In this document: piece after piece, positions 9,083 through 36,759 of the stretch | How positions within the stretch are numbered: position 1 is the first letter of the stretch | Layout of the letters: the number at the start of each line of letters is the position of its first letter | Notes under the pieces: generated by a model | Databases searched by the model: none | Told to the model about the DNA's origin: nothing | The model's input: only the letters and a program-made list of their open reading frames with translations | Position numbers and translations under genes: made by a program | Virus record (IMG/VR): IMGVR_UViG_3300005337_000013 | Location: 1-39,593 of that record | DNA from: a virus | Length of the DNA stretch: 39,593 nt | Reading direction: 5' to 3' (one strand)

Positions 9083-9586
9083 CTATATGTGTTTCCAGGT
9101 AATTTTTCTTACAATATAACTCATCGTACTTGATCTTAATCCAAAAATTTTGCAAAGCTCAGAATTTGATTTTCCATTCGAAGACAATTCTCTAATTTTT
9201 AAAACATCTTCATTTTTTAATTTAGCATGTCTATTTTTTTCGCCTAGGCCTTTCTTTTCTCTTTTACGTTCCCTCATTTCATTTATATTATCTTGTGCAG
9301 TTCCTAAATGGAGATGGTCAGGATTGACACATAAGGGAACATCGCAGTAATGCAAAACTTGAAGATTATTATGAATTTCACCTTTCCATAATCTATATGA
9401 TAATCTATGAGCTAGAATTTTTCGTTTTTTCCCATCTAATTTTGAAGAAGTTAAACCATACATTTTCTTTGGTTCACACTTATATCCTTGCCAAATCCAG
9501 CAACCTTTTTCGTCTTTTTTCACAGTATTTAACATTCTATTTTTAGTATAATCCAGATATTGATGGAAAGACATAGTGTTATCCAT
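9083..9586 (-). CDS. HNH endonuclease with C-terminal helix-turn-helix
   Basis: 167 aa. The nuclease core is HRLSYRLWKG followed by LHYCDVPLCVNPDHLHLG, the HNH_3 layout of free-standing phage homing endonucleases. After GEKNRHAKLKNEDVLKIREL comes a helix-turn-helix (SNSELCKIFGLRSSTMSYIV) that probably reads the target. The start is ATG 9586 with a GGATTG upstream; Met5 is an alternative. It is the last gene of the minus-strand cassette and converges on the plus-strand ejection genes. Confidence 0.88.
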   Translation of the reverse strand: MDNTMSFHQYLDYTKNRMLNTVKKDEKGCWIWQGYKCEPKKMYGLTSSKLDGKKRKILAHRLSYRLWKGEIHNNLQVLHYCDVPLCVNPDHLHLGTAQDNINEMRERKREKKGLGEKNRHAKLKNEDVLKIRELSSNGKSNSELCKIFGLRSSTMSYIVRKITWKHI

Positions 9587-9588
9587 AA

Positions 9589-9687
9589 TTAATCAATCCA
9601 GGTATCTGGATGCCCCTCAAATTTACTTTCTCTAGATAAAAAAAATAACACAAAACAAAATATAAAAAAACTTGTTGGGATATACAT
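9589..9687 (-). CDS. 32-aa single-pass membrane peptide
   Basis: A very short gene with good signals: ATG 9687 preceded by GAGGAG and starting 1 nt after the stop of the upstream gene. Residues 5-18 form a Phe/Leu-rich membrane helix, followed by a charged tail (SRESKFEGHPDTWID). It sits between a small membrane protein and the HNH gene. A lysis accessory or partner of the SPFH protein is possible; function unknown. Confidence 0.5.
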   Translation of the reverse strand: MYIPTSFFIFCFVLFFLSRESKFEGHPDTWID

Positions 9688-9688
9688 T

Positions 9689-9886
9689 CTATTTCTCCTC
9701 ATGTTTAGCCAATTCAACTGGCATAATATTCTTCATTATTAAAATAGTTTTTATCATTACTATATCCTTTTCAATCGCATTAAATCTTTGATCGAGATCA
9801 TTGAATTTACTATTCATCCAAATAGTGGATGTTGCAAATGCTCCTAAGATGATCACAGTATCAACGTGTTTTTTAAACCAATCCAT
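9689..9886 (-). CDS. Small membrane protein with coiled-coil tail (holin-like?)
   Basis: 65 aa. One membrane helix (about residues 9-24, VDTVIILGAFATSTIW) is followed by a heptad-like charged helix (FNDLDQRFNAIEKDIVMIKT). The ATG shares one base with the stop of the SPFH gene upstream (TAATG), so the two are co-translated. Small one-pass proteins with a coiled-coil tail occur among holins and spanin-like proteins, but none can be assigned. It resembles in plan the 70-aa protein on the other side of the SPFH gene. Confidence 0.6.
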   Translation of the reverse strand: MDWFKKHVDTVIILGAFATSTIWMNSKFNDLDQRFNAIEKDIVMIKTILIMKNIMPVELAKHEEK

Positions 9887-10743
9887 TATTTATTTTCTTT
9901 TTTTGAATCTATTTGAATAAATGGTATATTTTCACCTGTTACATGTGGTAAATGACCATCCCATTTTTGTACTGATTGCCATTGAATCAACTCAACAGTT
10001 ATCGATTGTGATAGAACTAAATTTGCTTTTGCTTCTGATTCAGCTTGAAGAATAGCACACTTAGCTTGTCCTTCAGCTTTTGCAATTTGTTTCTTAGCTT
10101 CTGCTTCTGCTTCCCTAAGCTCATTTTCACGCTGTTGGGCTCTTTGATTTGCTTCAATTTTGGAATTTAAAGCAGTGATAACATTTGAAGGAAAATGAAA
10201 TCTTCCAATTAAATATATGCGAGTTAACTCAATTCCAATTGGAGACAAATCATTCCTAACATGACACTCAACATCTTCGAAAAATGATTCTTTTCCGCTA
10301 TAAAGATCTTCAATCTTTGTCTTTGATGCAGATTTATTAATAGCATCCCGAATATAATTCCTGATAAAAACATTAGTTATTTCATCCATTCCTCTTCGAT
10401 ATCTTTGAAATATTTTAGGAATAGACTCAGGTCTTAAATGATATGTTATCCCTACATCTGCAGAAACTGCCATGCCTTCAGAAGTTTGGAAATTAAATCC
10501 TTCCTTATCTCCCTCCCATGTATCATTCTGTTCAAAGATAGGGAATTCATACACATTTTTCCAAGGAGCAATCCAATGCATACCCACATGAAGTTCTTTA
10601 GATTCAACACCTTTTGAATCACCTAGCATATCAATTACAACCCCAACATATCCAGGAGAAATCATTTTGAAACAGGTAATCCATAAAACGATTATGATCC
10701 CTGAAAATATTACAAATTTAGGATAATCTTTTATGAATTTCAT
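9886..10743 (-). CDS. SPFH/Band 7 (prohibitin, HflC-like) membrane protein
   Basis: 285 aa. A membrane helix at about residues 9-27 is followed by SPGYVGVVID, the usual entry to an SPFH domain. The domain (about 30-190) includes TSEGMAVSADVGITYHL and IGIELTRIYLIGRFHFP. A long Ala/Glu/Lys coiled coil follows (about 195-245), as in prohibitins, HflC and stomatins. Host relatives form rings around membrane proteases such as FtsH; HflKC affects lambda's lysis/lysogeny decision by limiting FtsH. A phage copy could modulate a host membrane protease or membrane domain; that role is inference. It is coupled at both ends to small membrane proteins. Confidence 0.88.
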   Translation of the reverse strand: MKFIKDYPKFVIFSGIIIVLWITCFKMISPGYVGVVIDMLGDSKGVESKELHVGMHWIAPWKNVYEFPIFEQNDTWEGDKEGFNFQTSEGMAVSADVGITYHLRPESIPKIFQRYRRGMDEITNVFIRNYIRDAINKSASKTKIEDLYSGKESFFEDVECHVRNDLSPIGIELTRIYLIGRFHFPSNVITALNSKIEANQRAQQRENELREAEAEAKKQIAKAEGQAKCAILQAESEAKANLVLSQSITVELIQWQSVQKWDGHLPHVTGENIPFIQIDSKKENK

Positions 10744-10955
10744 TATTTTTTAGTCCTTTCATCTAATGCAGCGATTCTTTCAAACATTTCTCTTTCATGA
10801 TCATGTATTCTTTTCAAACGCAAATCCATTCTCATCTCAGCATCTTTAAGTTCTGAACGAGTAGGTGTTCTTACCCACATGTAAAGCATGAAAAAAATAA
10901 ACATGTTTTCGAATAAGAAATATAGCATGTCTCCAAATACACTTGATGATTCCAT
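10743..10955 (-). CDS. Small membrane protein with coiled-coil tail
   Basis: 70 aa. One aromatic-rich membrane helix (about residues 11-27, LYFLFENMFIFFMLYMW) is followed by a charged helical tail (LKDAEMRMDLRLKRIHDHER). Its stop overlaps the SPFH start by one base, so both are made from one message. No lysis family is recognisable. A partner or anchor for the SPFH protein is as likely as a holin. Confidence 0.6.
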   Translation of the reverse strand: MESSSVFGDMLYFLFENMFIFFMLYMWVRTPTRSELKDAEMRMDLRLKRIHDHEREMFERIAALDERTKK

Positions 10956-10969
10956 TATGTTTTATTCCT

Positions 10970-11485
10970 TTAATCTTTACAAAGATGCTGCCATCTTTTT
11001 TTTAGTTTTAATTTTGAAATTGTTGTTTGTGAAACATTAAAAATTTTTGCAATATAGGATTGAGTATGATTTTGTTTTAATAATTCTCTTATCTCATATA
11101 CATTTTTTTCTGTTAAAAATGCATGTCTATTTTTTTCACCATTTTGGTCTATTTTATGAAAATAACCTCTATTTTTTTTGTCTCTATCTTTAGAATTTTC
11201 TTTATGAGTACCTAAAAATAAATGATTTAAATTAATACATGAAGGATTATCACATTTATGACAAATGATCATTCCTTTAGGAATTTCTCCATTAATTAAA
11301 TACCACATTAAACGATGAGTTTTCCAAGTTTTTCTATTGCTTTTTATAGGAGTAAATATGGTATGTCCGTAACCATTTTTATCTTTACCTCCTAGCCATT
11401 CGATACAACCAAATTCATTAATTTTTGATTTTTGAATTAAATAAAAAAATTTTTGTTGCTCATAATGAGATTTCATTATTTTCAA
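10970..11485 (-). CDS. HNH endonuclease with C-terminal helix-turn-helix
   Basis: 171 aa. The core reads HRLMWYLINGEIPKG then ICHKCDNPSCINLNHLFLG, an HNH_3 nuclease, followed by GEKNRHAFLTEKNVYEIREL and a helix-turn-helix (TQSYIAKIFNVSQTTISKL). Same architecture as the genes at 9083 and 14308 but clearly diverged from both. Its start overlaps the end of the excisionase-like gene by 26 nt; Met4 is an alternative start. Probably a selfish insertion in the membrane-protein operon. Confidence 0.88.
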   Translation of the reverse strand: MKIMKSHYEQQKFFYLIQKSKINEFGCIEWLGGKDKNGYGHTIFTPIKSNRKTWKTHRLMWYLINGEIPKGMIICHKCDNPSCINLNHLFLGTHKENSKDRDKKNRGYFHKIDQNGEKNRHAFLTEKNVYEIRELLKQNHTQSYIAKIFNVSQTTISKLKLKKRWQHLCKD

Positions 11486-11699
11486 TCATATGTTTTTTTA
11501 CGATTTCTTTAAGATCGCACATGAGTAATCTTTGAATTTCAGTATGTGGAATACGATAAGTTTTTTTGTTCTCACCAAATCTAAAAGCGCTTATACGAGC
11601 ATCTTTAATTGCTCTACGGATAGTATTTGGATGAACCCGTAACTTTTCAGCAAATTCATTAATGGTATAGAAATCTTTTATATTTTCATTCATATGCAT
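11460..11699 (-). CDS. Excisionase-like helix-turn-helix DNA-binding protein
   Basis: 79 aa. The motif FYTINEFAEKLRVHPNTIRR followed by AIKDARISAFRFGENKKTYR is the winged HTH_17 pattern of excisionases and MerR-like small regulators. ATG 11699 has no clear ribosome-binding site; Met3 is equally possible. It is first in the minus-strand cassette and may control it and the divergent fibre promoter. No integrase is present, so an excisionase role is not supported. Confidence 0.75.
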   Translation of the reverse strand: MHMNENIKDFYTINEFAEKLRVHPNTIRRAIKDARISAFRFGENKKTYRIPHTEIQRLLMCDLKEIVKKHMIENNEISL

Positions 11700-14220: not shown

Positions 14221-14307
14221 TTTTACATGAGCTAGGGCGACGGTCCGAAAAGCTGCTTCTGACAGCCTGCTCAATGTATTCAATCAGGATAAAACTACAG
14301 AGGTTTT
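14221..14307 (+). other. GC-rich structured element between fibre and HNH genes
   Basis: This short stretch is markedly richer in G+C than flanking DNA. It can form GAGC...GCTC with an inner GG/CC pair, a GCTG-cttctga-CAGC hairpin and a CCTG...CAGG pair. It contains GCGACGGTCCG, which resembles the S element of group I introns, but no 5' core partner is visible. It may be the 3' remnant of an intron, a terminator or the leader of the HNH gene, whose AGAGG ribosome-binding site lies at its end. Confidence 0.35.
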
Positions 14308-14937
14308 ATGAAATGTGCAACATGCAATATTGAATTTTATGTGAAAAAATCTCACATAAATAGAAGAAAATTTTGTAGTAAAATATGTATGAATAAAAAA
14401 GTTCATACTTGGTGTACAAAAAATAGAATTATAATAAAAAAATTAGACTCTAAACAAAAACTGGAAGAACTTAAAAAATCTTTTGAAAAAAATGTCATTA
14501 AAAATGATGGATGTTGGGATTGGAAGGGAGCGAAAGATAAAGATGGATATGCAAGGATGTCATGTAGTCCTTTGTTAGGCGCAGAAAGAGCACATATGGC
14601 CTCATATCTAATCCATATAGGAAAAATACCGAAAGGTAAGTTAATATGTCATCATTGTGATGTGAAAGTATGTACAAACCCTAAATGTCTTTTTGTTGCA
14701 TATCCCAGATACAATTCTGCCGATATGGTAATAAAAAATAGGCAGGCAAAAGGTTCTAAGAATGGGACATCAAAATTATCTGAAAATCAAGTGAAAGAAA
14801 TAAAAAAGATGTTACATTTAGGAAACACAGGTCCAGAAATAGCGAAAAAATACTCAGTTCATTACACGACTATTTATCGCATTAGAGATGAAAAAAACTG
14901 GTCCCACGTAACCCTTGATCCAGAACCAGAAAGTTAA
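14308..14937 (+). CDS. HNH endonuclease with N-terminal zinc finger and C-terminal HTH
   Basis: 209 aa. An N-terminal zinc finger (MKCATCNIEF, then RKFCSKICMNK) precedes an HNH core (HMASYLIHIGKIPKG then ICHHCDVKVCTNPKCLFV). A helix-turn-helix end follows (TGPEIAKKYSVHYTTIYRI). In the core the usual NPxHLFLG is NPKCLFVA, so the last histidine is replaced by cysteine and activity may be altered. The start is ATG 14308 after AGAGG. It separates the fibre gene from two small fibre-associated genes. Confidence 0.85.
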   Translation: MKCATCNIEFYVKKSHINRRKFCSKICMNKKVHTWCTKNRIIIKKLDSKQKLEELKKSFEKNVIKNDGCWDWKGAKDKDGYARMSCSPLLGAERAHMASYLIHIGKIPKGKLICHHCDVKVCTNPKCLFVAYPRYNSADMVIKNRQAKGSKNGTSKLSENQVKEIKKMLHLGNTGPEIAKKYSVHYTTIYRIRDEKNWSHVTLDPEPES

Positions 14938-17336: not shown

Positions 17337-17530
17337 TCCTGAAAATTAATTAGATTGCATGGACAGTTTTCGCAATGCTTAAGTTCATTTACCTCGAAAA
17401 GGTGTCCATTTATCTCTAATACAATCCCAAATTCATTATGATGGAATATGTGAGCATCATGTATTCCATCTTCTAAATTAGAAGAAAAAAGAGATGTTGG
17501 GATCAAAAGAAAGGCTAAAAGATACTTCAT
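17333..17530 (-). CDS. Small exported protein
   Basis: 65 aa from ATG 17530, which follows AAAAGGAACCAA; an upstream in-frame TTG is before that site. The first 16 residues (MKYLLAFLLIPTSLFS) form a signal peptide. The mature part is about 50 aa with a C-terminal cluster HCENCPC that could bind metal or form disulfides. Last gene of the minus-strand early operon, overlapping the tailspike stop by 4 nt. Function unknown. Confidence 0.6.
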   Translation of the reverse strand: MKYLLAFLLIPTSLFSSNLEDGIHDAHIFHHNEFGIVLEINGHLFEVNELKHCENCPCNLINFQD

Positions 17531-17541
17531 TTGGTTCCTTT

Positions 17542-17742
17542 TCAAGTTTTACAGATAAATTTTTCGATTATTTTAAGACGTTCTTCTACTTCAAAAAGAA
17601 GTTTTCTATCATTTCCTCGATCAGCAAATAATTTTTTACGCACTTTATCATTAGAAAGCTTGACTTCTTCTACATATTTTCTTAATTGGATGAGTTCTTC
17701 TTCTTCATCCGTTCTAAACATATCCAATTGCAGTTGCATCAT
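17542..17742 (-). CDS. Conserved small coiled-coil phage protein
   Basis: 66 aa beginning MMQLQLDMFRTDEEEELIQL and continuing as a charged helix with heptad character (LRKYVEEVKLSNDKVRKKLF). Similar acidic-basic helical proteins with a QLDMF start are common in phage early operons, but I know no function. Its start shares a base with the stop of the upstream gene, implying coupled translation. Confidence 0.55.
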   Translation of the reverse strand: MMQLQLDMFRTDEEEELIQLRKYVEEVKLSNDKVRKKLFADRGNDRKLLFEVEERLKIIEKFICKT

Positions 17743-17978
17743 TATTTTCCCATTTTGGCATTCATGTATAACTCAATCTTAGTTTTTCCATCATTATTTT
17801 TTTTTACAGATGATAATAAAATAGGGGAAGGTTGTCTAGTTGGTGGTATTTCTGAAATGAATTCGTTAAATGTTAGCAGTTCCTTTCTTCTTTTTATAGG
17901 ATTTTCTATTATGTCAATTTCTGGTACTGTTCCTACAGATCTAGGAAAACAACAAGAAAACAAATCAAGTAGTCCCAT
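17742..17978 (-). CDS. Hypothetical small early protein
   Basis: 78 aa from ATG 17978, chosen because AAAAGGAG lies 5 nt upstream; a GTG two codons earlier overlaps that site. The N-terminus MGLLDLFSCCFP has two adjacent cysteines and could associate with membrane. The rest is hydrophilic. No family recognised. Confidence 0.5.
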   Translation of the reverse strand: MGLLDLFSCCFPRSVGTVPEIDIIENPIKRRKELLTFNEFISEIPPTRQPSPILLSSVKKNNDGKTKIELYMNAKMGK

Positions 17979-17990
17979 AATCACTCCTTT

Positions 17991-18182
17991 TCATAAATAA
18001 ATTTTAAAAGCTTGACAGTCCTTGCATTCACAACGCTTTTCTTCCTCTTCATAGATACGGATATAGCCATACCACGCAAACTCAAAACAACCGGCTTTTT
18101 CTTTTACCAATTGCTGAAAAGACTTTCTTTTGCATGAGCATTCTAATGTATGCTCGCCACACAAATCGCATTCGTGGTTCAT
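17991..18182 (-). CDS. Small cysteine-rich, probable zinc-binding protein
   Basis: 63 aa. CDLCGEHTLECSC near the N-terminus and CECKDC near the C-terminus give seven cysteines plus nearby histidines, enough for one or two zinc sites. It sits in the minus-strand early operon. Such small zinc proteins are often host-takeover or regulatory factors; nothing more specific can be said. Confidence 0.55.
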   Translation of the reverse strand: MNHECDLCGEHTLECSCKRKSFQQLVKEKAGCFEFAWYGYIRIYEEEEKRCECKDCQAFKIYL

Positions 18183-18206
18183 ATTATTCCTTTGTATGCA
18201 GTATAA

Positions 18207-18386
18207 TCATGATGGCCACCAGTATAATGAAAGTCCAGTCATGGTGGATAAGATGATACTAATTAAAATAGCCACAGTTGTTCTGGAAGTTGTTTTCACT
18301 AGAGTAAGCTTACCCATTTGGAAACCAATCTCTATGACTTGAAAGATAAATAATGTAAAAAACCAAACAAAACTAAAACTTAGCAT
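18207..18386 (-). CDS. 59-aa protein with two membrane helices (holin-like?)
   Basis: ATG 18386 follows CGGAGAAATT. Residues about 3-22 and 38-56 are hydrophobic and separated by a short basic loop (KLTLVKTTSRTT), giving a two-span hairpin ending YWWPS. That is the size and topology of a small class II holin, but it lies in the early operon with no lysozyme nearby, so lysis is unproven. Its start overlaps the stop of the preceding micro-gene (ATGCTAA). Confidence 0.5.
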   Translation of the reverse strand: MLSFSFVWFFTLFIFQVIEIGFQMGKLTLVKTTSRTTVAILISIILSTMTGLSLYWWPS

Positions 18387-18439
18387 AATTTCTCCGAATT
18401 TTTTCCAAGTAATATTTCAGAACATTTGACCCATTCCAT
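18380..18439 (-). CDS. 19-aa micro-ORF, possible leader or DUF551 fragment
   Basis: An ATG with AGGAAT upstream opens a 19-codon frame whose stop overlaps the next start, so it may couple translation of the two-helix membrane protein. It begins MEWVK, echoing the MEWVN start of the DUF551 protein just upstream, so it could be the stub of a duplicated copy. Confidence 0.3.
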   Translation of the reverse strand: MEWVKCSEILLGKNSEKLC

Positions 18440-18440
18440 A

Positions 18441-18653
18441 TTATTCCTGCGTAGGTTGTGACAATAGCATCCAATGCGTTGCATTAAAACAAATTGGATC
18501 GTTTAATCTAGATGCGCCAATCATATAAAACTCAAATTCTTTAAAGAAATTTGAGTAAGTTGATATGTAATAATTAAAAGGTCTTGTTTCATTCCAAACT
18601 ACGCAAACGCAATCTTTTTCAGGGAGTCTATTTTTAACATTTACCCATTCCAT
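18441..18653 (-). CDS. DUF551-family small phage protein
   Basis: 70 aa from ATG 18653 after GGAGTGTGAAATA; an in-frame TTG five codons earlier overlaps that site. The pattern EWVNVKNRLPEKD near the start and ATHWMLLSQP near the end is the DUF551 signature, common in phage early regions and of unknown function. A more distant relative with the same WV...LPED plan is encoded at 29854. Confidence 0.7.
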   Translation of the reverse strand: MEWVNVKNRLPEKDCVCVVWNETRPFNYYISTYSNFFKEFEFYMIGASRLNDPICFNATHWMLLSQPTQE

Positions 18654-18683
18654 TATTTCACACTCCAATATTCAACAGGATTT

Positions 18684-18896
18684 TCACTCTTTTGATTTTT
18701 CGTATGCATAGTAATATTTCACAGCAATAGAAGTTTCATTTTGGATCTTTTCTAATGACCAATCATTCTTTACAGCTAAATGCACAAAAACCCTAATAAG
18801 AGCATCGGGAGAATATTCAATCAATTCATTTGAATAAAGAGTTTTATATATAGCAACCGTTGCTTCGGCTGTTTTTAAAATGCGATCTTTTATCAC
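18684..18896 (-). CDS. Hypothetical small helical protein
   Basis: 70 aa. The start is probably GTG 18896, overlapping the exonuclease stop (GTGA) and preceded by GGAGTGTGAA. The same ten bases precede the DUF551 gene. The protein is helical (VAIYKTLYSNELIEYSPDAL, ending KYYYAYEKSKE) without known motifs. Coupling to the exonuclease suggests it belongs to the recombination module. Confidence 0.5.
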   Translation of the reverse strand: MIKDRILKTAEATVAIYKTLYSNELIEYSPDALIRVFVHLAVKNDWSLEKIQNETSIAVKYYYAYEKSKE

Positions 18897-19744
18897 TTCA
18901 CACTCCAAAACTCAACTGACTTTCCTCGATACTTCTCAAGATCGACATTACTTAATTCAGGGATTTTTTTATAGTCAATGCTTCCCTGTCTCACTGTTTT
19001 GGACAACTTTATACCGTTCCCCATCGCGTTTGATTGTCCACTTAATGACACTAGTTGGTTTTTCCAAAATTCCTCTTCTTCTTCGAATCTCTTTCTTCTG
19101 TCCCTTGATAATATATACTGATTGCTTGCATGTATCCATGACTCATCACTTATTTGTTTATGATCATTTTCTGAAAAGGGAGCTACAAGATTTTGAACAC
19201 ATTCATAAAACTCATATTCTTTTTCAATCATTTTATCGATGAATTTCTGGTCTCTATATACTTTAAAACAATAAGTAGATTCTGTTTGATAGCTTAAATA
19301 GAACATCTCATCGAGTCCCATAACTTCCATTTGATGCTGAAGTTGTGGAACATATTTTGGAGGCACTTTCTTATTAGAAGCGATTTCATGATCTATTCGC
19401 CCTGGACACTTTACTTCAACTGCAACTTTTAAATCACTAGAAATGCCATCTAAGCTAGCTGCCATCCATTCGTGTTTTGGATGTATGTACACAGCTGGTT
19501 TTACAATTACACCTTCTTCCATAGCGAATGCAGCAATGGCTAAAGGTTCATTTTCAGTCCCTCTTCTCATCGCAGCATTTACTATCGTTTCAGATAACCC
19601 TAGTTTTTCTTGCCATAATGCATAAGGACTCTTAAATCCAATTCCAAGTATTGATGCACTGTCTGATGCTCCGATTTTAGTTTTTCTAAAATCAAGCCAT
19701 TCCTGTGAACCTTGCTCTAAATCAATCTTTATTGGCTGGTGCAT
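18893..19744 (-). CDS. YqaJ-type viral recombinase exonuclease
   Basis: 283 aa from Met at 19744 (AGG just upstream); an ATG at 19756 would add four residues. It shows the lambda-exonuclease/YqaJ fold signatures: GSQEWLDFRKTKIGASDSAS near residue 15, RRGTENEPLA, then ASLDGI and VEVKCPG, giving the Asp...Glu-x-Lys metal-binding centre, and PKYVPQLQHQMEV. It degrades one DNA strand from ends to expose single strands for the RecT partner encoded just upstream, with which it overlaps. The pair is a complete single-strand-annealing recombination system. Confidence 0.9.
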   Translation of the reverse strand: MHQPIKIDLEQGSQEWLDFRKTKIGASDSASILGIGFKSPYALWQEKLGLSETIVNAAMRRGTENEPLAIAAFAMEEGVIVKPAVYIHPKHEWMAASLDGISSDLKVAVEVKCPGRIDHEIASNKKVPPKYVPQLQHQMEVMGLDEMFYLSYQTESTYCFKVYRDQKFIDKMIEKEYEFYECVQNLVAPFSENDHKQISDESWIHASNQYILSRDRRKRFEEEEEFWKNQLVSLSGQSNAMGNGIKLSKTVRQGSIDYKKIPELSNVDLEKYRGKSVEFWSVK

Positions 19745-21590: not shown

Positions 21591-21764
21591 ATGAAAACTC
21601 TCTTAAATATATCTCTAAGACTAAGTCTTATTTTCCTAACCGCTTGCACTTATTCTATAACAATGGTACATACTGAAGGTACTGCAACCGATGTTGTAGA
21701 TGAAACGCAAAGAGCTGATCCAGATATTAAGACCGATTTAACGGTTCCAGTATCTTTGAAGTAA
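21591..21764 (+). CDS. Small phage lipoprotein
   Basis: 57 aa; ATG 21591 after AAGGAAAAAAT. The signal peptide (MKTLLNISLRLSLIFLTAC) ends in the lipobox LTAC, so cysteine 19 would be lipidated. The mature 39 residues are acidic and Thr/Asp-rich (TATDVVDETQRADPDIKTDL). Similar short lipoproteins with a DVVDET-type tail are familiar from phage genomes, with unknown role. Superinfection exclusion is one known use of phage lipoproteins, but nothing here shows it. Confidence 0.7.
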   Translation: MKTLLNISLRLSLIFLTACTYSITMVHTEGTATDVVDETQRADPDIKTDLTVPVSLK

Positions 21765-26015: not shown

Positions 26016-26294
26016 TTATTCCTTCACAATCGCAATCAAATCATCCAAATTAAAGATCGTGAAAGTTTCATCTTCTATAGATACTTCTTGTCCCGAATAC
26101 TTCTGAGTCATAGCAACGTCTCCAACTTTTACAATGGAGTCTTTTACATTAGTTCCTAATGCAACAATCTTAAATCTATCTGGTTTTTTCTTAGATGAAT
26201 CGGGAAGAATCAATCCTCCTTTAATCGTTTCATCCTCAACTATAGTTTGACCTAAAACTCTATTTCCTAATGGCTTAAATTTTGATTTTTTCAT
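26016..26294 (-). CDS. groES: Phage-encoded GroES co-chaperonin
   Basis: 92 aa, slightly shorter than typical bacterial GroES (about 95). It reads FKPLGNRVLGQTIVEDETIK then GGLILPDSSKKKPDRFKIVA; GGLILPD is in the mobile loop that docks on GroEL. VKVGDVAMTQKYSGQEV and DDLIAIV complete the Cpn10 fold. The ribosome-binding site TAGGAGAACAC is excellent. Phage GroES analogues (T4 gp31, for example) let host GroEL fold a large capsid protein; whether that applies here is inference. It sits among small regulator genes, not near the capsid. Confidence 0.9.
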   Translation of the reverse strand: MKKSKFKPLGNRVLGQTIVEDETIKGGLILPDSSKKKPDRFKIVALGTNVKDSIVKVGDVAMTQKYSGQEVSIEDETFTIFNLDDLIAIVKE

Positions 26295-34589: not shown

Positions 34590-34608
34590 TGTAAACCAGC
34601 TTTACATT
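34588..34608 (+). other. Hairpin abutting the tRNA 5' end
   Basis: AATGTAAA-ccagc-TTTACATT, an 8-bp perfect stem covering the scaffold stop and ending exactly at base -1 of the tRNA. It may mark a processing site or a weak terminator. Confidence 0.5.
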
Positions 34609-34681
34609 GCTGACATAGCTCAATTGGTAGAGCACCCGACTTGTAATCGGACGGTTGTGGGTTCAATTCCTATTGTCAGCA
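34609..34681 (+). tRNA. tRNA-Thr (anticodon TGT)
   Basis: A 73-nt cloverleaf. Acceptor GCTGACA/TGTCAGC pairs perfectly; the D stem is GCTC/GAGC. The anticodon arm is CCCGA-CTTGTAA-TCGGA with one C.A mismatch at its base. The T arm is GTGGG-TTCAATT-CCTAT with wobble pairs. Anticodon TGT reads ACA, which is common in this AT-rich genome. CCA is not encoded. The tRNA lies in the head operon between scaffold and an endonuclease gene. Confidence 0.92.
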
Positions 34682-34684
34682 TGT

Positions 34685-35395
34685 TTAATGACGATAAATT
34701 TTATTAGGTAACTCTAATCTAAGATCAATATAATCTTGATCATTCATTCTGGACTTTGATTTTTTTATAGTTTCTAAATTTTCCATTACCCATAAAATTC
34801 CATTTTTTCTTACCCACCACATGAATTTATTTCTAGATATATTTAATTTCTTTGACCATTGAGATTCAGATAACTTTTCCCCTTTATATTCATAATATAT
34901 AGTTCTTCTACAATTATTGCTTTGAGTGTCTCGGTCAGCCCAACGACAATTATTTCTTTCATAATTCCCATAAACATCAATTCTGTCTAAAGAATAACCT
35001 ATTTCAGGATGACCCATATCCTCTAAGAAATATTCAAAGGACTTTAACCATCGATTACATACTTTTATACCTAATGCACCATATCTCTTATAGTTTTTAT
35101 CAGAAACACGATAACATCTACTTTTCATAGAACACCAAGCAGTGTAAACATGAAAATTAGGATGATTTACACTAGAATAACCATGTTTAAATGCAGGGTT
35201 TTTTGTTCCTTTACAATTTTCTTTTCTAGCACACGAACGACATTTTGTTGATTTATTTCTAGTTAAAGCAATGTAATCTGAAATAGATTCATTTCCACAG
35301 TCGCATTTAACTTTAAACTTATGAACTCTATTAAACTTACCTTTATAATGTAAAACAGTCCATTTTCCAAATTTCTTTCCAATAAATTCTTGCAT
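34685..35395 (-). CDS. HNH/AP2-like homing-type endonuclease next to the capsid intron
   Basis: 236 aa from Met at 35395, behind GGGATATTTT; an ATG four codons earlier is upstream of that site. The N-terminus MQEFIGKKFGKWTVLHYKGK is followed by a zinc ribbon (KCDCGNES, then KCRSCARKENC). The core YKRYGALGIKVCNRWLKSFE and SLDRIDVYGNYERNNCRWA belongs to a large phage family regarded as degenerate HNH or AP2-type endonucleases. A helix-turn-helix end follows (SESQWSKKLNISRNKFM). Its place on the opposite strand beside the intron-bearing capsid gene suggests a role in intron mobility; this is inference. Confidence 0.8.
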   Translation of the reverse strand: MQEFIGKKFGKWTVLHYKGKFNRVHKFKVKCDCGNESISDYIALTRNKSTKCRSCARKENCKGTKNPAFKHGYSSVNHPNFHVYTAWCSMKSRCYRVSDKNYKRYGALGIKVCNRWLKSFEYFLEDMGHPEIGYSLDRIDVYGNYERNNCRWADRDTQSNNCRRTIYYEYKGEKLSESQWSKKLNISRNKFMWWVRKNGILWVMENLETIKKSKSRMNDQDYIDLRLELPNKIYRH

Positions 35396-35407
35396 AAAAT
35401 ATCCCAT

Positions 35408-35559: not shown

Positions 35560-36759
35560 ATGAGTATTACAACTACTGGGAACTTGGGTTAAATTCGGCT
35601 CAAGTAAAATCTTCTCTGATTGACTCGGACCCCTTACCATGAAAGATGAAGGAAACGAGGCGGAACCAAAAATGGACCGTGAACGCAGTAAGCGAGAAGA
35701 CATCGAAAGATGAAGCAGTACTCTGAACTCTATGGAAACATAGAGAGATTAGCTGAGAAGACTAGTCCGCCTAGAAATAGGTTAAAAAGTAACAGATTGC
35801 CAATGATTCTCCAGAGCTTAGCTCCGGCGATGTTATATGTGCCTACTCCCCAAATGAACTATATCACAGTTTGTGATAAAATTTCTATGCCCGCAAATGG
35901 TGGTACAACATGTAGATTTATGCGCCCACGCGCACTACAACCACCCACTGTGCAATTAGGTAATGCGGGTATTGATCCCCCAGCTCAAGTGCCTCAGAGG
36001 GATATTATAGACGCACAAATGGCGTTTTTTGGAACAGGATGTATTATAAACGAACAAGTAATACTACAAGACCAAGAAGGAGTTTTAGCTTGGGTGTCAG
36101 AGCGTTTAGCAGTTGCTATGCGTCAAGCAGAAGATTTGATTCTTAGGGATTATATCGTTTCTGCAGCATCTCAAATTAATGCTGGTGGTGGATCTAATGG
36201 ATTTAATCCTACCAATTTAGGTCTTACAGACTTTTCATTGGTTGCGACTACATTAGATACAAACAATGCCTACAAGTTTATGTCTGGTATTGAAGGTATG
36301 GATAGATTTGGAACAGGTCCAGTTCGTTCAGCTTACTTTATGTTGAGTTCAACTGAATTGCAATCTGATTTCGATGCTTTGGGAAGCAATGGAAGTATTT
36401 CCTTTATTTCTCAATGGAACTATCCAACTAATGCATCTGCATTGCCTTCTGAATATGGTTCTGTAGCAAATATCAGAATCTTGACAAGTTCAGAAGCTCC
36501 AGTTGCAAGAAATGCAGTAGCTAATAGTTCAGGCACATTGAATGATGTATATTATAATACAGTACTTGGAAAACAAGCGATCACACATATTAATCAAGAT
36601 GGTTATTCCATGAATTTGATTTATAGAGATCCTTATTATTCAGGAATGTTAGCACAAAACGCTACATTAGCTGTGAAATTTGCGCAAGCGCAAGCTATTA
36701 CGCAAGATACAGCAATTAGAAACCTATTAAGCACACGCTTAAGCAATTTGGGAGTATAA
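35560..36759 (+). CDS. Major capsid protein, N4 gp56-type, interrupted by group I intron
   Basis: Exon 1 is 35560-35589 (MSITTTGNLG) behind AGGAATATTTCC; exon 2 is 35800-36759. The spliced product is 329 aa. Exon 2 begins PMILQSLAPAMLYVPTPQMN, then SMPANGGTTCRFMRPRALQP, ALERLA-like helical VLAWVSERLAVAMRQAEDLI, and ends in LNDVYYNTVLGKQAITHIN and a Gln/Ala-rich helix. This fits the N4 gp56-like HK97-fold capsid family by eye. Without splicing, translation stops at TAA 35590. An ATG at 35710, in frame with exon 2, lies in an intron hairpin and is not the true start. It forms the capsid shell, presumably on the scaffold encoded upstream. Confidence 0.8.
35590..35799 (+). ncRNA. Group I intron in the major capsid gene (ORF-less, about 210 nt)
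   Basis: P1: exon CTTGGGT (35583-35589) pairs with GCTCAAG (35598-35604) over 7 bp, ending in the required U.G at the splice site. An S-like element AAGACTAGTCC lies at 35758-35768 (canonical AAGATATAGTCC), with an R-like GCAGTACT at about 35715-35722. GAAA-tetraloop hairpins occur at 35701-35712, 35728-35745 (7 bp, P8-like) and 35770-35781 (P9-like). A terminal G at 35799 gives exon 2 CCAAT, pairing 4 of 5 bases with the P1 loop (P10), and keeps the frame. TAA directly after exon 1 blocks read-through. The exact 3' site is the least certain point. Confidence 0.8.

What the first reader, a model, noticed from the sequence alone, without database searches (positions are those of the whole stretch)
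9589..10955. Phage-encoded SPFH/prohibitin-like protein in a coupled membrane-protein cassette
An HflC/prohibitin-type protein with a membrane helix, SPFH domain and Ala/Glu coiled coil is flanked by two small proteins that each have one membrane helix plus a coiled coil, all overlapping by single bases (TAATG), followed by a 32-aa membrane peptide. This tight four-gene unit is not a standard lysis cassette. It could act on host FtsH-type proteolysis, membrane domains or lysis timing.
Basis: partly seen in the sequence, partly recalled or inferred. Interest (0 to 1): 0.6.

Follow-up and report, generated by a model that had tools for sequence, protein, structure and literature searches.

The report
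Phage membrane-cage protein with small partners
A tailed phage, probably of environmental chlamydiae, carries a gene for a prohibitin-like membrane-cage protein flanked by tiny membrane proteins; such phage genes are common and their function is untested, but the close chlamydial chromosomal relatives and the recurring small-partner arrangement give a testable lead.

Summary
A 285-aa SPFH (Band_7) protein lies at 9886-10743 (-), overlapped by one base (TAATG) on each side by 70-aa and 65-aa proteins with one membrane helix and a charged helix. A 32-aa membrane peptide follows after a one-base gap, not an overlap.

The SPFH protein belongs to a known phage family (PHROG_200; homologs in 416 cultured-phage records). 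The four-gene order is not conserved. The real unit is an HTH-led operon interrupted by an HNH gene. The 65-aa gene recurs directly upstream of SPFH in three relatives; the 70-aa gene is a divergent member of a family seen in several.

In 15 of 21 cultured phages I picked for diversity, a small two-helix membrane protein (PHROG_1130 type) precedes SPFH, so "SPFH plus small membrane partner" is a broad theme; I found no report of it.

The gene conflicts with the portal tree, and synonymous sites are saturated under strong protein constraint. Capsid and SPFH relatives point to a Chlamydiota host, and Parachlamydiaceae chromosomes carry the same SPFH clade.

Best guess: a host-derived periplasmic SPFH cage that, with small partners, alters membrane protein quality control or microdomains during infection. 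A lysis role is weakly supported. Function is untested.

The parts
9886..10743 (-). SPFH (Band_7) protein, 285 aa: N-terminal membrane anchor, SPFH domain, long helix, conserved KWDGxLP C-terminal motif
   Evidence: Pfam Band_7 4.5e-30, PHROG_200 6e-69, AF2 model pLDDT 86.7, Foldseek to prohibitin/HflC/QmcA
10743..10955 (-). 70-aa protein, one membrane helix plus charged helix; overlaps SPFH start by 1 base; divergent member of the 'KDFHGRLCxIEE' small-protein family
   Evidence: cluster C2, 8 loci; alignment
9689..9886 (-). 65-aa protein, one membrane helix plus charged helix and a second weaker hydrophobic stretch; overlaps SPFH stop by 1 base
   Evidence: 53-62% identical homologs directly upstream of SPFH in L005, L010, L019
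9589..9687 (-). 32-aa putative membrane peptide, 1-base gap after the 65-aa stop, GAGGAG ribosome-binding site; no relatives found
11460..11699 (-). 79-aa HTH_17 (excisionase/AlpA-like) DNA-binding protein that heads the SPFH operon in six genomes
   Evidence: Pfam HTH_17 1.9e-9; cluster C8 in L002, L009, L010, L019, L021 and the window
10970..11485 (-). HNH homing-type endonuclease gene inserted between the HTH gene and the SPFH unit
   Evidence: HNH_3 5.8e-16; absent between HTH and SPFH in the relatives
9083..9586 (-). Second HNH homing-type endonuclease gene at the downstream border of the unit
   Evidence: HNH_3 9.4e-9

Best explanation
The unit is an accessory host-takeover module. The SPFH protein is anchored in the inner membrane by its N-terminal helix with the SPFH domain on the periplasmic side, as in HflK/C. 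It is inferred to oligomerise into a ring or dome like solved SPFH proteins, with the small membrane proteins as co-expressed partners inside or beside the cage. Because the same SPFH clade sits on Parachlamydiaceae chromosomes, the phage protein is inferred to imitate or co-assemble with the host's own SPFH scaffold. It would thereby shift membrane protein quality control (FtsH-type proteolysis) or membrane-domain organisation in the phage's favour. Shown: family, fold, gene coupling, wide phage distribution, mobility, chlamydial chromosomal relatives. Inferred: topology, oligomer, partner binding, target.
For: Fold and family. Topology: cultured-phage members carry a lipobox (e.g. LTAC, LAGC), which puts the domain outside the cytoplasm; in the window clade the cysteine is not conserved (A1) and the basic N-terminus predicts N-in/C-out. 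Accessory and mobile: SPFH is 76-83% identical (global) to that of phages whose portals are 22-25% identical (G001-G009, G014), but 61-75% identical in the window's own portal clade (G010-G012), with synonymous sites saturated and dN about 0.14-0.20. Monophyly of the portal-clade SPFHs is rejected (p-AU 0.016). 10 of 13 other portal relatives lack any SPFH match; two carry a different one (PHROG_11908), in G017 after the phosphoesterase gene, the slot PHROG_200 SPFH has in G011/G012. Small membrane partner next to SPFH: 4-6 of 20 relatives; 15 of 21 sampled cultured phages with the two-helix protein. Host copies: same clade (100/100) on Parachlamydiaceae contigs of 316 kb and 58 kb among housekeeping, type III and Suf genes.
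Against: No experiment and no co-folding; partner binding is inferred from gene adjacency alone. Most close relatives lack a single-helix neighbour, so the partner is not obligatory in this clade. No host target is identified, and FtsH involvement rests on analogy with HflK/C. Mobility and conservation would fit any accessory membrane function.
Confidence: 0.45

Rival explanations
1. Counter-defence or superinfection exclusion: the SPFH cage and partners protect the infected cell's membrane against membrane-acting defence effectors or block a second phage.
For: Accessory, mobile, strongly conserved gene. Neighbours in other phages include RtcB (6 loci), RNA ligase, NADAR, and NAD salvage genes flanking it in Myxococcus phage Mx1 and L031, kinds known from phage counter-defence (own knowledge). 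PHROGs files the two-helix partner under moron/host takeover.
Against: Neighbourhood of accessory genes is weak evidence; most neighbours are unrelated; no defence target is known; enrichment of these neighbours was not tested against background.
Confidence: 0.22
2. Lysis timing or lysis support: the small proteins act as holin- or spanin-like parts and SPFH organises them.
For: No lysis gene was recognised in the window. In Staphylococcus Kayvirus the SPFH gene mbpS and a one-helix, basic-tailed small protein MbpV lie between lysK and tgl (PMC7150955). The small protein of L017 has a marginal spanin hit (PHROG_739, E 0.007).
Against: In the cultured phages sampled, SPFH lies among nucleotide-metabolism and other accessory genes, not with annotated lysis genes. 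The spanin hit is below significance. Many phages of this group lack the gene.
Confidence: 0.15
3. Lysogeny control: an HflK/C imitation that slows FtsH degradation of a CII-like activator.
For: Suggested in print for other phages (PMC4936722; PMC8540360). An AlpA/excisionase-like HTH gene heads the operon.
Against: No integrase or CII-like gene was recognised among the window genes scanned; strictly lytic phages also carry the gene (PMC8540360).
Confidence: 0.07
4. Adsorption or DNA-entry factor, or chance assembly of unrelated membrane genes in a variable region.
For: Adsorption/entry was proposed for an oak-decline phage (PMC13239085). The locus often adjoins the tail-fibre gene (cluster C1) and the order of small genes varies.
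Against: Recurrence of the 65-aa family beside SPFH in four genomes and of PHROG_1130 upstream of SPFH in distant phages argues against chance.
Confidence: 0.11

Closest known systems
PHROG_200 phage SPFH lipoproteins (e.g. Escherichia phage 4MG, Stenotrophomonas phage Pokken, Pseudomonas phages)
   Same: Same family (6e-69), length, SPFH core, KWDGxLP C-terminus; often a small membrane gene directly upstream
   Different: The window clade has lost the lipobox and keeps an uncleaved membrane anchor; partners are one-helix proteins with charged tails instead of the two-helix PHROG_1130 protein
Parachlamydiaceae chromosomal SPFH proteins (G029, G069, G056)
   Same: Same fully supported clade; 51-73% identity; same anchor type
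   Different: Chromosomal, among housekeeping genes; no small one-helix partner with charged tail seen
E. coli HflK/HflC with FtsH
   Same: SPFH fold (Foldseek 3.5e-13), predicted N-in/C-out topology
   Different: Single SPFH gene, no HflK-HflC pair; FtsH binding unknown
E. coli QmcA-YbbJ (SPFH-NfeD)
   Same: Closest sequence among solved structures (1.9e-5); an SPFH protein with a membrane partner gene
   Different: Partner is not NfeD-like; predicted topology differs (QmcA N-out/C-in, own knowledge)
Kayvirus MbpS/MbpV (PMC7150955)
   Same: Phage SPFH gene with a small one-helix, charged-tail membrane protein in the same region
   Different: Gram-positive host; lies between endolysin and tgl genes

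Membership tests
SPFH superfamily (Band_7) | Band_7 domain above the curated cut-off | tested here: met
   105.4 bits against cut-off 23.6
SPFH superfamily (Band_7) | Membrane anchor, SPFH core and long C-terminal helix | tested here: met
   AF2 model: helix 8-23, mixed core, helix 186-247; Foldseek to full-length SPFH chains
SPFH superfamily (Band_7) | Assembly into a ring or cage | not testable with these tools
   Single-chain prediction only
PHROG_200 phage SPFH | Profile match | tested here: met
   6e-69
Phage SPFH lipoprotein | Lipobox cysteine after the signal helix | tested here: not met
   WITC in the window; cysteine not conserved in close relatives (L003, L011, L027; A1)
HflK/HflC | Paired HflK and HflC genes | tested here: not met
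   Only one Band_7 match in the genome
HflK/HflC | Complex with FtsH | not testable with these tools
   Needs biochemistry
QmcA-NfeD type SPFH | NfeD-like partner gene adjacent | tested here: not met
   No Pfam NfeD hit among neighbours
PHROG_1130-PHROG_200 phage pair | Two-helix PHROG_1130 protein directly upstream | tested here: not met
   The 70-aa and 65-aa proteins do not match PHROG_1130
Phage lysis cassette | Endolysin, holin or spanin family match in or beside the unit | tested here: not met
   None in the unit or the other window genes scanned; a few window ORFs were not scanned

The most novel reading that the evidence does not exclude
Tailed phages of environmental chlamydiae carry a horizontally exchanged, strongly constrained SPFH gene of the same clade as a chlamydial chromosomal SPFH. 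Together with small one-helix partners it builds a phage-specified cage that takes over or poisons the host's SPFH scaffold, a general phage strategy represented elsewhere by the PHROG_200/PHROG_1130 gene pair.
Probability: 0.22. Interest if true: 0.72.

Novelty: new variant of a known kind. Interest (0 to 1): 0.47.

Why it matters
SPFH genes occur in hundreds of phages and no tested function turned up in the papers searched; published guesses range from lysogeny control to adsorption and secretion. The recurring small membrane gene next to phage SPFH gives a concrete two-protein complex to test, and the chlamydial chromosomal relatives suggest what the phage version may imitate. The host evidence also points to tailed phages of Chlamydiota; three of my eight searches of this open-access library looked for such phages and found no report.

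Tried and rejected
Conserved four-gene cassette: rejected by gene order in 33 relatives. Standard lysis cassette: no family support. PspB identity of the 70-aa protein: E 0.068, below the Pfam cut-off. Recent transfer as the reason for high SPFH identity: rejected because synonymous sites are saturated. First automatic rule for one-helix charged-tail proteins gave 6 of 20; I discarded two doubtful calls (L013, L018) and it missed the 65-aa family, so the number is approximate. CRISPRi-ART paper: the 'prohibitin' hit was the word 'prohibiting'. phiCbK paper: 'band 7' was a gel band. Rfam found no intron in the relatives' interrupted capsid genes at gathering threshold. Three-row version of the clade test was not significant (p-AU 0.076). 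A complex could not be modelled with the tools allowed.

Full report
OBSERVATION. The window is a 39.6-kb phage record with a 100-bp direct terminal repeat, consistent with a complete genome. On the minus strand a 285-aa ORF (9886-10743) matches Pfam Band_7 (4.5e-30) and PHROG_200 (6e-69). The 70-aa ORF (10743-10955) and the 65-aa ORF (9689-9886) each share one base with it in TAATG. A 32-aa hydrophobic ORF (9589-9687) starts one base after the 65-aa stop, behind a good GAGGAG site.

STRUCTURE. AlphaFold2 on 31 homologs gives pLDDT 86.7: a membrane helix (8-23), an SPFH core and a 62-residue helix (186-247). Foldseek's best solved matches are human prohibitin, HflC, erlin, stomatin and QmcA-YbbJ (E 4e-14 to 7e-11). 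By sequence the closest solved protein is QmcA (1.9e-5). Individual TM-scores are about 0.5 with large rmsd, as expected when long helices bend.

TOPOLOGY (inference). Most of the cultured-phage homologs I looked at begin with a lipoprotein signal (for example LTACSKVPAG in Pokken, LAGCSKVPAG in Pseudomonas phage 5400), so their SPFH domain is extracytoplasmic. In the window clade the same stretch reads W..CFKMISPG, and the cysteine is absent in several close relatives (L003, L011, L027). The basic N-terminus suggests an uncleaved N-in/C-out anchor, the HflK/C arrangement.

DISTRIBUTION. tblastn finds homologs in 416 of 50,697 phage records, all below 60% identity, and in 33 IMG/VR contigs, about 21 of them at 77-88%. 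Phage SPFH proteins are thus a known kind. They were noted in T4-like phages in 2006 (PMC1524935) and given speculative roles later: lysogeny (PMC4936722, PMC8540360), adsorption or DNA entry (PMC13239085), secretion support in Kayvirus (PMC7150955). I found no experimental function.

GENE ORDER. Among close relatives the four-gene order occurs only in the window. The 65-aa family lies directly upstream of SPFH in L005 and L019 and upstream with one small gene between in L010 (53-62% identity), the opposite side from the window. The 70-aa protein is a divergent member of a family ending in KDFHGRLCxIEE found in several relatives. Other one-helix, charged-tail proteins touch SPFH in L006, L010, L017 and L021. 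An HTH_17 gene heads the unit in L002, L009, L010, L019, L021 and the window; in the window an HNH gene has been inserted behind it. By an automatic rule, such small proteins adjoin SPFH in 6 of 20 relatives against 8 of 431 long genes in the same genomes. Hand checking leaves 4 of 20 (p about 5e-4), and 3 of 19 without the window (p about 0.005). The genomes are related, so these p-values are optimistic. In L002, L003, L008, L011, L015, L018, L022 and others no such neighbour exists.

A BROADER PATTERN. I read the SPFH neighbourhood in 21 cultured phages chosen for diversity, not at random. In 15 a 61-84-aa protein with two membrane helices and a P-x-[LMF]-[VIL]-S motif lies upstream, mostly overlapping or within 16 bases (156 bases in 4MG, Mydo and NV1). 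Twelve of the 15 match PHROG_1130, filed under moron/host takeover, and four PHROG_11742. Three more have other membrane proteins directly upstream, including a one-helix charged-tail protein in a Staphylococcus phage, as in the window. SPFH plus a small membrane partner is therefore a broad arrangement in phages. The cellular pairs HflK-HflC and QmcA-YbbJ (8z5g) offer analogies, but the phage partners are not related to them by any test here.

EVOLUTION. SPFH is 76-83% identical (global) to that of phages whose portals are only 22-25% identical (G001-G009, G014), yet 61-75% identical in phages with portals 59-71% identical (G010-G012). Four-fold synonymous sites are only 22-47% identical while dN is 0.14-0.20, so the exchange is old and the protein strongly constrained. 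Holding the window and its three portal-clade SPFHs together is rejected (p-AU 0.016), though the three-row version is not (0.076). Of 13 further near-complete portal relatives, ten have no SPFH match, one has only a C-terminal fragment, and two have a different SPFH family (PHROG_11908). In one of these, G017, it follows a metallophosphoesterase gene, the slot that PHROG_200 SPFH occupies in G011 and G012. Replacement of one SPFH family by another at the same place suggests that the function itself is selected.

HOST. The window's capsid protein matches 9 of 234 Chlamydiota genomes, up to 93% identity, several on 35-41-kb contigs. It matches 1 of 395 Bacteroidota (a genome already picked for its SPFH) and 4 of 398 Pseudomonadota, the latter at only 23-29%. 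These contigs may be phages binned with metagenome-assembled genomes, so this is host prediction, not proof. SPFH proteins of the window's clade (100/100 support) also sit on Parachlamydiaceae contigs of 316 kb and 58 kb, between sugar-nucleotide, ABC-transporter and argininosuccinate lyase genes in one, and between type III secretion and Suf genes in the other (neighbour names read by eye from the translations). These look like chromosomal genes. Whether the phages took the gene from hosts or the reverse is open; cultured-phage lipoproteins branch outside the clade.

MECHANISM. Committed view, confidence 0.45: a co-expressed periplasmic SPFH cage with small membrane partners that imitates or engages the chlamydial SPFH scaffold and shifts membrane protein quality control or membrane organisation during infection. 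Family, fold, coupling, mobility and chlamydial chromosomal relatives are shown; topology, oligomer, partner binding and target are inferred. Rivals are counter-defence or exclusion (0.22; RtcB, RNA ligase, NADAR and NAD-salvage neighbours), lysis (0.15; Kayvirus precedent, no recognised lysis gene in the window), lysogeny control (0.07), and adsorption or chance (0.11).

VERDICT. Real, partly as described. A new variant of a known phage gene, made more interesting by its probable chlamydial host, the chromosomal relatives and the recurring partner gene.

Noticed in passing
window 35710-36759 and whole window: The capsid protein and other structural genes match contigs of 35-41 kb in several Chlamydiota genomes (up to 93% identity); the window is probably a tailed phage of environmental chlamydiae.
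   Followed up: partly
L153 (G105:C164) 1340-2679; L151 (G174:C2) 17389-19280: The capsid gene is interrupted in these chlamydial relatives (pieces matching residues 27-142 and 139-348 separated by insertions); Rfam found no known intron there.
   Followed up: partly
L100 1492-2730 (G017) and L099 857-2110 (G024): A different SPFH family (PHROG_11908, 412-417 aa) occurs in relatives; in G017 it sits after a metallophosphoesterase gene, where PHROG_200 SPFH sits in L024 and L026.
   Followed up: yes
L103-L122, gene upstream of SPFH: Small two-helix protein (PHROG_1130 type, motif P-x-[LMF]-[VIL]-S) precedes SPFH in 15 of 21 sampled cultured phages.
   Followed up: partly
L002, L003, L005, L015, L019 downstream of SPFH; PHB09 and phiCbK: RtcB or RNA ligase genes often follow SPFH; NAD salvage genes flank it in Myxococcus phage Mx1 and L031.
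   Followed up: partly
L034 5923-6129: A 68-aa remnant or C-terminal-only version of the SPFH protein in a phage of the window's portal clade.
   Followed up: no
window 34608-34682 (+) and 14225-14289 (+): tRNA-Thr (TGT) gene and a marginal int-alpA RNA match (37.8 bits, cut-off 35.8).
   Followed up: no
window 9083-9586, 10970-11485, 14308-14937, 34685-35407: Several HNH-type endonuclease genes are scattered through the genome (three scanned, the last judged by eye).
   Followed up: no
window 21591-21764 (+): 57-aa putative lipoprotein (LTAC) with homologs in G008 and G014; a possible outer-membrane spanin or exclusion protein.
   Followed up: no
L126 3926-4818: A broken relative of the SPFH gene (two frames) lies on a plasmid of Candidatus Megaira (Rickettsiales).
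   Followed up: no
window 26016-26294 (-): Looks like a GroES-type co-chaperonin by eye; not scanned.
   Followed up: no
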